Below are positions 38,664-44,518 of a stretch of DNA of 64,000 nt, piece after piece. The position numbers and the translations under genes are program-made. The notes under the pieces are model-generated. The model was not told where the DNA came from. It saw only the letters and a program-made list of their open reading frames with translations, and did not search any database. This DNA is from Chloroflexota bacterium (lineage in GTDB: Bacteria > Chloroflexota > Dehalococcoidia > Bin125), in NCBI GenBank assembly GCA_028874365.1, contig JAPPJZ010000079.1, forward strand, positions 35,610 to 99,609, given 5' to 3'. Within the stretch, counting starts at the first letter, position 1. Every line of letters starts with the position of its first letter.

Positions 38664-38716
38664 CTCTCACGCTTCGGACAGTCGCTGCACTGTTCCGACG
38701 TGGCGCCCGCAAGCTC

Positions 38717-39880
38717 ATGAGTACCTCGTTCGGCGTGACCCCTGAAGAGCGCGAGGGTCTGCTGGAGGCCGCTCGTTCGATCGCGCCGAAGATTCGCGAG
38801 TCCGCCGGCGAGATTGAGGCCGCTCGGCAGCTTCCCGGGCATATCGTCGACTTGCTGAAGAGCGTTGGCGCGTTCCGGCTACTCCAACCGCGTTGGCTGG
38901 GCGGACACGACGCCGACCCCGTGACCCAGATCCTGTTCATCGCCGAGCTAGCCAGAGCCGACGCCTCGACCGCCTGGTGTGTGATGATCGGCTGCGACGG
39001 CGGCTTGCTGACCCGGGAGCTTGAGCCAGACGTCGCCCGCGAGATGTACGCCGACATCGACGCCGCCACTTGCGGGGCGGGCTACCCGCCGGGGACCGCT
39101 CGAAGAGTCGAAGGCGGCTACGTGGCCAGCGGTCGCTGGCCCTACATGAGCGGGATTACCCACGCCGACTGGGTGCAGATGAACTGCCGGTTGAGCGGAG
39201 ACGATGCGCCATCGGACGGACCGCCGTTCATCAGACTGGTCGCGCACCGCGACGAGGTCACGATTCTCGACACCTGGAAGACGGGCGGCATGTGCGGCAC
39301 CGGCAGTCACGACGTTGAGGTCAAGGATCTATTCGTTCCTGACGAACGGAGCGTTCCTCCGCGCCCCGGTAATCGCTCCGTGCCGGACGATCCGTTGCGT
39401 CATCCCGCTTGGCTGCTGCCCAAGCACCTCGGCGTGGCGCTCGGTCTGGTCCAGGCGGCGCACGACGAGGTGATGGAACTCGCCCGCGACCGGATCGCCT
39501 TTCGCGGTGCGCTGCGTGACGACCCGCTGACCCAGGCAACACTCGGCGAGACGGCGGCACAGATCGCCGCCTGCCGCGCATATGCGCTGTCGGCGTCCGA
39601 TGCCGCCTGGCAGGAGGTCTGTGAGACCGGCGAAATGTCCGACGCGAACCGGGTCAATCTGCGCCTGTCGATTACACACGTCCACCAGGAGTGCCAGAGA
39701 GTCGTCGAGCAGCTCTACGCCGTCGCCGGCTCCGCGGCGCTGTACTCGGATCGCTCCGCACTCGACCGACGGCTGCGCGACATCCACGCGATGAATCAGC
39801 ACGTAGTGCTGGGAGCGTCAAACTATGCGGCGGCGGCGCGCGTACTGCTCGGTGACGAGGCCCGCGCTCCATTCTGGTAG
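38717..39880 (+). CDS. Acyl-CoA dehydrogenase-fold flavoprotein (group D monooxygenase-like)
   Basis: A 387-aa acyl-CoA-dehydrogenase-fold protein resembling HsaA/HpaB-type flavin monooxygenases: LLEAARSIAPKIRESAGEIEAARQLP, LRQPRWLGGHDADP-type N-terminal helices, ADASTAWCVMIG, then the beta domain VEGGYVASGRWPYMSGITHADWVQM and WKTGGMCGTGSHDVEVKDLFVP, with a C-terminal four-helix bundle. No acyl-CoA dehydrogenase catalytic Glu is clear. I use ATG 38717; the open frame to 37982 overlaps the VOC gene and is not protein-like. Confidence 0.88.
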   Translation: MSTSFGVTPEEREGLLEAARSIAPKIRESAGEIEAARQLPGHIVDLLKSVGAFRLLQPRWLGGHDADPVTQILFIAELARADASTAWCVMIGCDGGLLTRELEPDVAREMYADIDAATCGAGYPPGTARRVEGGYVASGRWPYMSGITHADWVQMNCRLSGDDAPSDGPPFIRLVAHRDEVTILDTWKTGGMCGTGSHDVEVKDLFVPDERSVPPRPGNRSVPDDPLRHPAWLLPKHLGVALGLVQAAHDEVMELARDRIAFRGALRDDPLTQATLGETAAQIAACRAYALSASDAAWQEVCETGEMSDANRVNLRLSITHVHQECQRVVEQLYAVAGSAALYSDRSALDRRLRDIHAMNQHVVLGASNYAAAARVLLGDEARAPFW

Positions 39881-39899: not shown

Positions 39900-41069
39900 T
39901 TAGCTGCGATACATCGGCGCCATGAAGAACCAGACCGGCTGGGGCGCGCCCTGGGCGGCGAGCGCTTTCCGCACGGTCAGGATCAGTTTGCCCGCCTCCG
40001 TGCGTTCGAAGAACCAGTCTTCGGTCTGATGACCGCCGGGATTGGGCGCGTCGGCCAGTTCCAGCGCGGCCTCTTCGTAGTAGGCGCGAATGTCGTTGGC
40101 CAGCGCCGTCGTGTGTCCGCCCGGGATGCCGGCTTCCTTCCACGGCGTGCCATTCACGATGTTCTGGAGCACATCCAGGGCATGCGGCACGCCATCGGCG
40201 TCGACGGCGTTGCCGACTTCGCTGACCCCGCGGCGAGCGAGGGCGCGATCGTAGGCCTTGCGCAATCCCCGTGCCTCGTCCACGGCCGGCGCCAGATCGG
40301 GATCGAATCGCGGCGGCACCGTGCAACTCAATGGCTCTTCGACGCCCACGATTTCCTCGGGATGAACATCCAGCACCGGACCGGAATCGCGCTCCAACAA
40401 CGAGAACGCGCGGCGCAGCACGTCGTGCTGGAAATCGGGATCGTTGGTCTTCCCCAGCGGCCGTCCAAGCGGGAACTCGCAATGCAGCACTCGCGGCGGG
40501 CGCATGCGTTCGCCGACGGAGCGAATCGAGGTGATCGTCACGGTCGACAGACCAGCCGCCTCGAAGACGTGGGCCAGCGTACACACGGTACGCGAGCAGA
40601 GCGGTCAAACCGGGGTCAGGAAGACAACGTCGACGCCGTCGGCCTTGAGCTCGGCTGCGCATGCCGGACCGGAGTCGTTGCGGATCGTGGCGACATCGTC
40701 GGGCTGATTGCCGGCAAACGCGTAGTGCTTCGAGGCAACCGAGCCGATGATGCCCTGTTCGACCAGCTCATCCAGGCGTGCCAAGGGATAGACGACGTTG
40801 TAGTCGATGCCGAATGCGGAGCGGTCGAAGTTGGGGCTCCAGTGGCCCATCACCAGCTGGCGGTCGTCGTGGTCAAGCGCGCGATAGCTGGTGTCGGTTA
40901 CCGTGAACGACTCCCCGCCGCGCGGATACAGGGCCGCCGAGGTCACGACCGCCACTCTCGCTTCGGACAGCGGCGGTGGCACGGTCCAGGCCGTCTCGGA
41001 GAACTCGGGGACGGGCTGCTGGCCGACCTGTGCTCGTATCAGGGCGTCGCCAGATGGTTGCTCTGCCAT
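39900..41069 (-). CDS. Probable selenoprotein, glycine/sarcosine/betaine reductase selenoprotein B (GrdB)-like
   Basis: Two co-linear ORFs (41069-40605 and a Met-less continuation to 39900) lie in the same frame and are separated only by one TGA at 40605-40607. Reading it as Sec155 gives one 389-aa protein. The junction reads LTPV-U-PLCSRTVC, so Sec155, Cys158 and Cys163 form a UxxC redox motif, at the place where GrdB has its UxxCxxC. The context (GVDVVFLTPV before, LAHVFEAAGLSTVTITS after) is typical of the GrdB/PrdB family, in which reductive cleavage is carried out by Sec. A SECIS-like hairpin starts 7 nt after the UGA. It lies 38 nt downstream of the carboxylase gene. A premature-stop pseudogene or sequence error is the alternative. 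The substrate is unknown. Confidence 0.78.
40573..40597 (-). promoter_or_regulatory. SECIS-like hairpin downstream of the in-frame UGA
   Basis: On the mRNA the UGA (40607-40605) is followed after 11 nt by GCGUAC, a 5-nt loop CGUGU and GUACGC, a perfect 6-bp stem. After a C/U mismatch three more pairs (one a G/U wobble) extend it to 40597-40573. The apical loop has G at its second position and begins 18 nt after the UGA. This agrees with the bacterial SECIS model of an apical loop 16-37 nt downstream with a G in the first two loop positions. Confidence 0.7.
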
Positions 41070-41107: not shown

Positions 41108-44100
41108 TTACCACGTGTCGATGTTAGGCCGCCGGCCGCGACGGATCGGCTCCGGGTTCTCGCAGGCCATCAGTCCTCGGACGATCCAGCGGCGGGTGTC
41201 GGCCGGATCGATCACGCCGTCGTTCTCGTGGACCGAGGCCGAGTTGATCGCGTTGCCCCGCCAATAGGCGTCGGCGACCAGCGCCTCGTAGCGGGCGGCG
41301 CGTTCCTCGATGTCCCCGATCGCTTCCAGCTCGGCCCGGTTGCCCAGGCGGACAGCCGCTTCGAGATTCATGCCGCCCAGCTCGGCCGTCGGCCAAGCGA
41401 GCGCGAATAGCGGCGCACGCGAGCTGCCGGTCATCATTGCCTGCGCCGCCAGACCGTAGGACTTGCGCAGGATGATCGTGAATCGCGGCGACTGCGCGTT
41501 GGCCAGCGTGACGAAGACGTTGTTGCACTTGCGGGCGAGGCCGGTGCGCTCGATGTCGGGTCCGACCATCATCCCGGTCGTGTCGACCAGCACGAGGATG
41601 GGGATGTTGAAGCAGTCGCAGAGCTGCGCGAAGCGGCAGAGCTTGTCGGCGCCATCGCTGTCGACTGCGCCACCAAGATGTTCGTTGTTGTTCGCGATCA
41701 CGCCGATCGGGTGGCCCTCAATGCGGATCAGCGAAGTGATGATCCCGACGCCAAACTCGCCGCGTAACTCGAGCACCGAGTCGATGTCGGCCATCTGCTC
41801 GATCACCTTGCGCACGCTGAAGGGTCGCTTGCGGTTCTCGGGAATCGCGTGTCGCAGGTGTCGCTGATCAACGCAATCCCAGCTCGGAATCGAGCCCTGG
41901 AAATAGGACAGATACTGCTTCGCCGCAGCGATCGCCTCGTGTTCGTCCTCGACCAGGATGTCGACGCTGCCGGCCGGGCCGAGATCGGACATCGGGCCGA
42001 TCTCTTCGGGCGTAAACAGGCCGAGCCCGCCACCCTCGATGGTTGCGGGTCCGCCCATGCCGATGTTGGCGTCGCGGGTGGCGATGATGCAGTCGGTGAT
42101 GCCCAGGATCGATGCGTTGCCAGCGAATGTACGGCCCGCTGTGATCCCGATCATAGGCACCGTGCCGCTGATTCGCGCCATCATGTCGTACGTCGGCACC
42201 CACTGGCCGGCAGACGAGACATCGGAGAAATCGGTGTCACCGGATCGGCCGCCGGCGCCCTCGGCCCAGACGATCAACGGCGTCGCCTGTTCGTCGGCGA
42301 ACTTGATCACCCGGTCGGTCTTCTGGTGGCCCATCATGCCCTGGGTGCCGGCCCAGACCGTCTCGTCGTACATCGCGACCAGGGTGGTCGCGCGGTTTTC
42401 GTCGAACAGGTTGCCGTTGACTGTGCCGATTCCGGTAATCATGCCGTCGGCCGGCGCGCGCACCCGCATTTCTTCAATAGACATGATTCTGTGTCGAGCA
42501 GGCAGGACCAGTTCTCCCATCTCGACCCAGCTGCCGTCGTCGACCAGCTCCGCCAGGCTCTCGCGCTGCGTCAGCTTGCCCTTCTCGTGCCGGCGCTCCA
42601 CCCAGGGCTGGCGGTTTTCGTCCTTGCCGGCGTCGAGATTGTCAAACAGCTTTTGCAGATCGGGCCGGATGTAGTCGAGAGCGATTTCCTGCTGTTCTTC
42701 GCGAATCGCGTCGCCGACGTCGGCCTGCTCAATGAAGGCGAGCGGGTGTCCTTCGTAGACCACGTCGCCGACCGCGACCGTGAGCTGTCGCAGGTAGCCG
42801 CCGATGTCGGAGTTGATGATGTGCTCCATCTTCATCGAGTCCATCACGAACATCTGCTGGCCCTCGCGAACGGCGTCACCTTCTTCGACCAGGATCTGGA
42901 TGATCGTGCCCTGTAGCGGAGAGTCGATCGGCTCCGTCCCCGGCGGCCCCACGATGTTCGGCGCCGGCTGTGTCCCCGGCGTCATCGTCGCGACGCCCTG
43001 CTGCGCCCTGGTCCCTGAGCCTTCGCGGAAGTAGTTCAGTCCGGCGAGCGGATCGAGCGTGTCGAGTTGCGCTCCTGCAAGTCCGGCCTGCGAATCGGAA
43101 GCGCCATTTTGAGCGGGCAGATCGAGCTCCGGCTCCGCAGCAAGCTCTGCGACATGGTCATCAACCCAGCGGGTGTAGATCGCGCCAGACCCGAAGTCGT
43201 CGTGCGCCAACGAATGTTCCAGGAATGACAGGTTGGCCTCAACCCCCTCGATCCGAAACTCCTTGAGCGCGCGGCGCGTCCTACCAACGACATCGCCGAA
43301 ATCCGCTGAGGACGAGTAGGCGATCACTTTGGCCAGCAGTGAATCGAAGTTGGGATTTGTCGTGTAGCCGGGATAGCCGTAGGTGTCAACCCGCACGCCG
43401 GGTCCCGAAGGAGGCTCGAACGCGGTCAACGTCCCGCCGGACGGACGCACATCGCCGCTCGGCTCCATGCGCTCCATGTTGACACGCGCCTGAATCGCGT
43501 AGCCACGAGCGGCCGGAACGTCCGCTTGAGAGAGTCCGATCTTCGCCAGCGATTCTCCGCCCGCGATCCGGAGCTGCGCGCGGACGAGATCGACGCCGGT
43601 CACTTCTTCGGTCACCGTGTGCTCGACCTGGAGACGCGGATTCGCCTCGATGAAGGCCAGATCAGTCTCATCGTTGCTGTTGACCAGGAATTCGAACGTG
43701 CCCAGACTGCGGTAGCGGTCCGACGCCGCCAGGCGAACGGCGGCGGACGTCAGTCGCTCGCGCGTCTCATCCGAGATCGACGGGCTCGGCGCCCATTCGA
43801 CGACCTTCTGATGCCGCCGCTGCAGGCTGCACTCGCGTTCGCCCAGGTGCGCGACCGCGCCGGAGCCGTCGCCGATGATTTGCACTTCGACGTGACGCGC
43901 AGTGGTCATCAGGCGTTCGACCAGCAGGTCGCCGTTGCCGAACGCTGTGGCAGCCTCCGACTGGCAACGCTCGAACGCCTCGGCAATCTGATCCTCGGTC
44001 GTGACTACACGCATTCCCCGTCCGCCTCCTCCCGCGATCGCCTTGAGCACCATCGCACCGTCATCGCCGAGCGATCGGAAAAAGTCGCTCGCGCCTTCGA

Positions 44101-44518
44101 GATTGACGGCTGCTTCGGTCCCGGGCAGAACAGGAACGTTCAGCTCCACGGCCAATGCTCGCGCCCGCGCCTTGTCGCCGAACAGTTCCAATGATTCTGG
44201 CGTCGGGCCAACAAAGGTAATCCCGGCCGCGTCACACTGCCGCGACAGTTCCGCGCTCTCCGCGAGGAAGCCGTATCCCGGATGCAGCGCGTCGCAACCG
44301 GCGTCAATCGCAGCGCCGACGACCGACTCGACATCGAGGTAGGCGCGAGTCCCGGCGCCTTCCAACGACACCGCCTCGTCGGCCAACCGCAGAGGCAGCG
44401 AGTTGGCGTCGTCCTGGGAATGGATCGCGACGGAGGCGACGCCAAGTTCGCGCGCGGCGCGGATGATCCGAATAGCGATTTCGCCACGATTGGCGACCAA
44501 CAGTTTGCTGACAGGCAT
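41108..44518 (-). CDS. Single-chain acyl-CoA carboxylase (BC-BCCP-CT fusion)
   Basis: A 1136-aa enzyme with all parts of a biotin-dependent acyl-CoA carboxylase in one chain. Residues 1-450 are biotin carboxylase (LLVANRGEIAIRIIRAARELG, KAIAGGGGRGMR, FIEANPRLQVEHTVTEEVTG). The biotin carrier has VMDSMKMEH with biotinyl Lys563. Residues about 620-1136 are the carboxyltransferase (TGIGTVNGN, ATTLVAMYDETVWAGTQGMMGHQKTDR, GPATIEGGG, AQAMMTGS). This layout matches the single-chain long-chain acyl-CoA carboxylases (LCC) known from mycobacteria; the substrate here is not readable. It is followed by the selenoprotein gene and is divergent from the gene at 44625. Confidence 0.93.
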   Translation of the reverse strand: MPVSKLLVANRGEIAIRIIRAARELGVASVAIHSQDDANSLPLRLADEAVSLEGAGTRAYLDVESVVGAAIDAGCDALHPGYGFLAESAELSRQCDAAGITFVGPTPESLELFGDKARARALAVELNVPVLPGTEAAVNLEGASDFFRSLGDDGAMVLKAIAGGGGRGMRVVTTEDQIAEAFERCQSEAATAFGNGDLLVERLMTTARHVEVQIIGDGSGAVAHLGERECSLQRRHQKVVEWAPSPSISDETRERLTSAAVRLAASDRYRSLGTFEFLVNSNDETDLAFIEANPRLQVEHTVTEEVTGVDLVRAQLRIAGGESLAKIGLSQADVPAARGYAIQARVNMERMEPSGDVRPSGGTLTAFEPPSGPGVRVDTYGYPGYTTNPNFDSLLAKVIAYSSSADFGDVVGRTRRALKEFRIEGVEANLSFLEHSLAHDDFGSGAIYTRWVDDHVAELAAEPELDLPAQNGASDSQAGLAGAQLDTLDPLAGLNYFREGSGTRAQQGVATMTPGTQPAPNIVGPPGTEPIDSPLQGTIIQILVEEGDAVREGQQMFVMDSMKMEHIINSDIGGYLRQLTVAVGDVVYEGHPLAFIEQADVGDAIREEQQEIALDYIRPDLQKLFDNLDAGKDENRQPWVERRHEKGKLTQRESLAELVDDGSWVEMGELVLPARHRIMSIEEMRVRAPADGMITGIGTVNGNLFDENRATTLVAMYDETVWAGTQGMMGHQKTDRVIKFADEQATPLIVWAEGAGGRSGDTDFSDVSSAGQWVPTYDMMARISGTVPMIGITAGRTFAGNASILGITDCIIATRDANIGMGGPATIEGGGLGLFTPEEIGPMSDLGPAGSVDILVEDEHEAIAAAKQYLSYFQGSIPSWDCVDQRHLRHAIPENRKRPFSVRKVIEQMADIDSVLELRGEFGVGIITSLIRIEGHPIGVIANNNEHLGGAVDSDGADKLCRFAQLCDCFNIPILVLVDTTGMMVGPDIERTGLARKCNNVFVTLANAQSPRFTIILRKSYGLAAQAMMTGSSRAPLFALAWPTAELGGMNLEAAVRLGNRAELEAIGDIEERAARYEALVADAYWRGNAINSASVHENDGVIDPADTRRWIVRGLMACENPEPIRRGRRPNIDTW

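What the first reader, a model, noticed from the sequence alone, without database searches (positions are those of the whole stretch)
39900..41069. Hidden selenoprotein: GrdB-like gene read through an in-frame UGA with a SECIS-like hairpin
Two ORFs in the same minus-strand frame are divided only by a TGA at 40605-40607. Read through, they give a 389-aa GrdB/PrdB-like protein with Sec155-x-x-Cys158 at the expected redox site. There is no frameshift, no decay on either side, and the second half has no credible start of its own. The hairpin at 40573-40597 has an apical loop 18 nt after the UGA with G at loop position two, as in bacterial SECIS elements. It lies directly downstream of a single-chain acyl-CoA carboxylase, far from any classical glycine-reductase operon (no grdA/grdC, trxA or trxB), so its chemistry may be new.
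Basis: partly seen in the sequence, partly recalled or inferred. Interest (0 to 1): 0.9.

Follow-up and report, generated by a model that had tools for sequence, protein, structure and literature searches.

The report
PrdB-like selenoprotein without its usual partners
This gene, which looks split by a stop codon, almost certainly reads that stop as selenocysteine to make one 389-residue protein; it belongs to a marine selenoprotein family already reported but never characterised, here in a long form with an extra domain and without the partner subunits its well-studied relatives need.

Summary
Confirmed. The two ORFs are one gene with an in-frame UGA (40605-40607). In 82 of 82 homologues where the site could be read, across several phyla, it is TGA. 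Known PrdB genes have their Sec codon at the same column, and aerobic alphaproteobacterial relatives have Cys. The genome encodes tRNA-Sec, SelA, SelB and SelD. Both halves are under similar purifying selection. The hairpin fits the bacterial SECIS model and shows a compensatory change.

What it is: not a D-proline or glycine reductase subunit. The PrdB core (26-226) matches the PrdB model far below its cut-off. The pyruvoyl-subunit family (PrdA/GrdE) is absent from all 20 genomes of its family, though found in 14 other genomes of the class. The protein adds a ~150-residue C-terminal helical domain without a Pfam match, holding an invariant Cys249.

UxxC 'PrdB' selenoproteins are already reported as abundant in ocean metagenomes, so this is a variant of a known kind. 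Its reaction is open: most likely Sec155-Cys158 redox chemistry on a small organic substrate. The carboxylase neighbour is conserved only in the genus and says little.

The parts
39900..41069 (-). Selenoprotein gene, 389 aa with UGA read as Sec; PrdB-like core plus C-terminal domain
40605..40607 (-). In-frame UGA, Sec155
   Evidence: TGA in 82 of 82 homologues; aligns with the Sec codon of PrdB and with Cys in alphaproteobacteria
40573..40597 (-). bacterial SECIS hairpin: 6-bp upper stem, 5-nt loop CGUGU, short outer helix
40596..40598 (-). Codon of Cys158, second residue of the UxxC redox pair, invariant
   Evidence: 78 of 78
40392..40994 (-). PrdB-like domain, residues 26-226
   Evidence: TIGR04483 E=1.2e-32, 113 bits against cut-off 300; PF07355 over its cut-off
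39903..40352 (-). C-terminal helical domain, residues 240-389, without Pfam match; contains invariant Cys249
41108..44518 (-). Upstream single-chain acyl-CoA carboxylase (biotin carboxylase, biotin carrier, carboxyltransferase), 38 nt before the start; context only
   Evidence: neighbourhood found in 6 loci of the same genus only

Best explanation
It is one gene for a genuine selenoprotein. The UGA at codon 155 is read as selenocysteine by the genome's own SelB/tRNA-Sec system, guided by the SECIS hairpin just downstream. The protein is a stand-alone, long-form relative of PrdB, the Sec subunit of D-proline reductase. Supported by comparative sequence evidence: Sec155 and its partner Cys158 are fixed, the machinery is present, and the pyruvoyl subunit is absent. 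Inferred: the selenolate of Sec155 attacks a small organic substrate (a C-N, C-S, C-O or C-halogen bond, or an oxidised group), Cys158 resolves the selenide intermediate, and a thiol donor or the invariant Cys249 of the C-terminal domain helps to re-reduce the pair. Sub-probabilities: selenoprotein 0.97; not a D-proline/glycine reductase subunit 0.95; reductive substrate chemistry rather than general thiol or peroxide redox about 0.5.
For: tRNA-Sec 70.2 bits over cut-off and ARAGORN anticodon tca; SelA 530 bits, SelB 319-342 bits, SelD 352 bits, all over cut-off; TGA in 82 of 82 homologues; Sec codon of annotated PrdB genes at the same column, Cys in Haematobacter and Roseomonas; dN/dS below 0.14 on both sides of the UGA; SECIS conservation and covariation; PF09338 absent in all 20 genomes of the family but found in 14 other genomes of the class; PrdA and GrdA not found; invariant C155, C158, C249 in 78 of 78. 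The attack-and-resolve chemistry is taken from the mechanism proposed for PrdB (PMC3091704) and for GrdB-like FarB in C-F cleavage (PMC10838667).
Against: There is no protein-level evidence. PrdA/GrdE activate their substrates through a pyruvoyl group, and without such a subunit the known mechanism cannot be copied as it stands. Neighbours differ between lineages, so no substrate is indicated. Cys249 lies in a stretch of low model confidence.
Confidence: 0.85

Rival explanations
1. A general redox protein: Sec155-Cys158 works as a selenol/thiol peroxidase or oxidoreductase that protects the cell, not as a substrate-cleaving reductase. (A rival to the inferred chemistry only, not to the selenoprotein claim.)
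For: The UxxC motif is typical of thiol redox proteins; the pyruvoyl subunit is absent; oxygen-using enzymes lie nearby (luciferase-like monooxygenase in the window; PhyH dioxygenase in a relative). A paper whose title reports peroxidase activity of GrdB is cited in PMC3091704.
Against: The core keeps many invariant non-Cys residues (N80, D82, H115, R203), as expected of a substrate pocket. Genomes hold up to four or more divergent copies, which suggests different substrates.
Confidence: 0.4
2. A true D-proline or glycine reductase Sec subunit (PrdB/GrdB) whose operon was scattered.
For: Homology over nearly the whole PrdB length, Sec at the same column.
Against: 113 bits against a cut-off of 300; no PrdA, no PF09338 in any of 20 genomes of the family, no GrdA; extra C-terminal domain absent from PrdB.
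Confidence: 0.03
3. The TGA is a sequencing error or the gene is a pseudogene.
For: The window comes from a draft assembly of 82 contigs, probably a metagenome bin.
Against: The same TGA occurs in independent assemblies of the genus and in 82 of 82 homologues; purifying selection downstream.
Confidence: 0.005
4. UGA is read as another amino acid or as a regulated stop that yields a short product as well.
For: Sec insertion is usually incomplete, so some 154-aa product is likely (own knowledge).
Against: The genome has a tRNA-Sec with UCA anticodon; Cys replaces the position in relatives without an internal stop; no other internal UGA in the gene.
Confidence: 0.02

Closest known systems
D-proline reductase Sec subunit PrdB (TIGR04483; C. 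sticklandii CLOST_2232, Sec152 of 242)
   Same: Homologous over about 200 residues; Sec at the same column; UxxC
   Different: 28-32% identity to annotated PrdB; far below the model cut-off; no PrdA partner; extra ~150-residue C-terminal domain
Marine 'proline reductase PrdB' selenoproteins of the Sargasso Sea and GOS metagenomes
   Same: UxxC PrdB-like selenoproteins (pfam07355), 42 and 235 sequences; very probably include this group
   Different: The passages read give no tested function and do not mention a long form; sequences not compared here
GrdB/GrdF/GrdH (TIGR01917, NF040794, NF040795) and FarB of Cloacibacillus
   Same: Distant homology, UxxC Sec motif
   Different: GrdB has an N-terminal extension instead; works with GrdE and GrdA, both not found here
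'Glycine/sarcosine/betaine reductase selenoprotein B family protein' of alphaproteobacteria (Haematobacter, Roseomonas)
   Same: Stand-alone PrdB-like proteins without a reductase operon beside them
   Different: Cys instead of Sec; 302-308 aa; about 29% identity

Membership tests
Bacterial selenoproteins | In-frame UGA aligned with Cys or Sec in homologues | tested here: met
Bacterial selenoproteins | tRNA-Sec, SelA, SelB, SelD in the genome | tested here: met
Bacterial selenoproteins | bSECIS: loop 3-9 nt, stem 4-16 bp, G in the first two loop positions, 16-37 nt after UGA, MFE at most -7.5 (PMC13188914) | tested here: met
   5-nt loop, 6 bp, G at position 2, 17 nt, -10.9 to -11.7 kcal/mol
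Bacterial selenoproteins | Sec present in the protein | not testable with these tools
   Needs 75Se labelling or mass spectrometry
D-proline reductase PrdB (TIGR04483 equivalog) | Score over the curated cut-off of 300 bits | tested here: not met
   113.3 bits
D-proline reductase PrdB (TIGR04483 equivalog) | Pyruvoyl partner PrdA in the genome | tested here: not met
   TIGR04480 no match; PF09338 no match in own genome or family, with positive genomes elsewhere in the class
GRDB superfamily (Pfam PF07355) | Score over gathering cut-off | tested here: met
   25.8 against 22 bits; found at E<=0.1 in 36 of 36 aligned members
Glycine reductase | GrdE (pyruvoyl subunit family PF09338) present | tested here: not met
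   No match in own genome; 14 positive genomes elsewhere in the class
Glycine reductase | GrdA present | tested here: inconclusive
   PF04723 no match, but no control genome rang

The most novel reading that the evidence does not exclude
A selenoenzyme class of probably aerobic bacteria that does PrdB-type selenolate chemistry without a pyruvoyl subunit, with its own C-terminal domain and Cys249 supplying substrate activation or re-reduction, expanded to four copies per genome in these Chloroflexota.
Probability: 0.4. Interest if true: 0.7.

Novelty: new variant of a known kind. Interest (0 to 1): 0.45.

Why it matters
PrdB-like selenoproteins have been listed among the most abundant selenoproteins of the surface ocean since 2005, under the name of an anaerobic amino-acid reductase that this subfamily cannot be, because the partner subunit is missing. 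This report defines one clear long-form subfamily, with fixed residues (Sec155, Cys158, Cys249) and a SECIS element that can be tested directly, and shows that the usual name is misleading for it. Automatic annotation probably splits or truncates these genes.

Tried and rejected
Rfam scan of 40400-40700 gave no SECIS family. Whole-region folding of 43-53 nt after the UGA is not more stable than shuffles, so thermodynamic stability alone does not support the hairpin. A first bSECIS test with uninterrupted stems missed the focal element, and a test allowing internal mismatches was used instead. Fold searches gave no significant match: best E 3.8e-3 to photocobilin proteins, VIA Z at most 7.8 to common Rossmann-like and periplasmic-binding folds over residues 32-240; the C-terminal domain alone had no match under E=1. 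phmmer against solved structures found nothing of note, PHROGs nothing. Neighbourhood comparison gave no conserved partner across lineages. Papers on selenoproteins in SAR202/Chloroflexi: none found.

Full report
Observation. On the minus strand, 40605-41069 (154 aa) and the frame down to 39900 are one reading frame divided only by TGA 40605-40607. Read through, it gives 389 aa with U155-P-L-C158.

Is the UGA real and coding? Of 82 homologues whose site could be mapped, from Chloroflexota, Acidimicrobiia-type Actinomycetota and a few bins labelled Gammaproteobacteria, Deltaproteobacteria and Akkermansiaceae, all 82 carry TGA there. In a profile search of 393 genomes of the class, all the listed matches that cover the site contain an in-frame TGA. 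Annotated clostridial and enterococcal PrdB genes have their Sec TGA at the same alignment column, and the stand-alone relatives of Haematobacter and Roseomonas have no internal stop and align Cys there. dN/dS against seven congeners is 0.06-0.13 upstream and downstream of the UGA alike. Sequencing error and decay are excluded.

Machinery. The genome (3.12 Mb, 96% complete) has tRNA-Sec (70 bits, ARAGORN tca), SelA, SelB and SelD, each over its curated cut-off. The SelD gene itself contains one in-frame TGA.

SECIS. The hairpin 40573-40597 meets all four published bSECIS constraints (PMC13188914). By itself this means little: 17.6% of random TGAs in this window pass. However, synonymous shuffles reach its stability in 0.06% of cases, 65 of 67 orthologues pass, 63 with identical spacing and loop, and the stem pair of columns 18 and 28 is U-A in 39 and C-G in 17 distinct sequences, with one exception. 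That pair joins a silent Arg codon position (CGT/CGC) to the first base of the codon for Thr or for Val/Ala (48 CGT-ACG, 18 CGC-GNG, 1 CGC-ACG), so the silent change follows the amino-acid change, as an RNA constraint would require. Relatedness inflates the counts, but the C-G form appears in several separate lineages of the tree.

Family. Residues 26-226 match PrdB (TIGR04483, 1.2e-32) at 113 bits against a cut-off of 300, and GrdB-type models more weakly. PrdB is about 240 aa with Sec at 151-152. Residues 240-389 form an extra helical domain (pLDDT 84.5) without Pfam or structural match. Sec155, Cys158 and Cys249 are invariant in 78 long-form proteins, whereas position 163 varies. The genome has three further long-form relatives, two of them in tandem, all with TGA.

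Partners. No PrdA or GrdA was found, but no control genome rang in those two searches. For the pyruvoyl subunit family PF09338 the class search gives a proper control: 14 of 393 genomes have it, none of the 20 genomes of the window's family. The protein is therefore very unlikely to act as in D-proline or glycine reductase.

Surroundings. Upstream (38 nt) is a single-chain biotin-dependent carboxylase, conserved as neighbour in six loci of the genus only. In one group of Acidimicrobiia, a conserved set (SDR, EamA transporter, this gene, MFS transporter, a POR/DUF6537 protein) surrounds it. Elsewhere there are amidohydrolase, MaoC or sulfatase-like neighbours; the sulfatase naming rests on reading the sequence. 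The common theme is small-acid or acyl-CoA metabolism and transport; no substrate follows from it.

Mechanism. The selenol-thiol pair is strongly indicated by comparative evidence. Selenolate attack on substrate followed by resolution by a Cys is inferred from the scheme proposed for PrdB (PMC3091704); a GrdB-like relative has been implicated in C-F cleavage (PMC10838667). A simple peroxidase or disulfide redox role is a serious rival. A part for Cys249 is a guess based on its invariance. That the organism is aerobic is inferred from nearby oxygen-using enzymes, not tested.

Novelty. PrdB-like UxxC selenoproteins were the third most abundant known family in the Sargasso Sea set and 235 sequences in GOS. 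This is therefore a new variant (long form, no pyruvoyl partner) of a known, uncharacterised kind.

Noticed in passing
L019 (G000:C18:83058-83999): The genome's SelD is itself read through an in-frame TGA, so it is probably a selenoprotein (a known kind).
   Followed up: partly
L131 9380-12435 and L132 7400-8615: Three more long-form PrdB-like selenoprotein genes in the same genome, two in tandem beside SDR and enoyl-CoA hydratase genes; adjacent pairs also occur in congeners.
   Followed up: partly
L142 774-3711 (Peptoclostridium acidaminophilum plasmid): A prdB annotated without prdA beside it, with an EamA transporter upstream, as in the Acidimicrobiia group where EamA directly precedes the selenoprotein gene.
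   Followed up: no
L095 1170-8076, L096, L106, L113: Conserved cluster SDR - EamA transporter - selenoprotein - MFS transporter - POR/DUF6537 protein in marine Acidimicrobiia.
   Followed up: partly
L118 6001-7148: The homologue in an Akkermansiaceae bin appears frame-broken in its first part; probably a misassembly or binning error.
   Followed up: no
window 38690-39880: A convergent acyl-CoA dehydrogenase-like gene directly downstream, kept in several loci of the genus.
   Followed up: no
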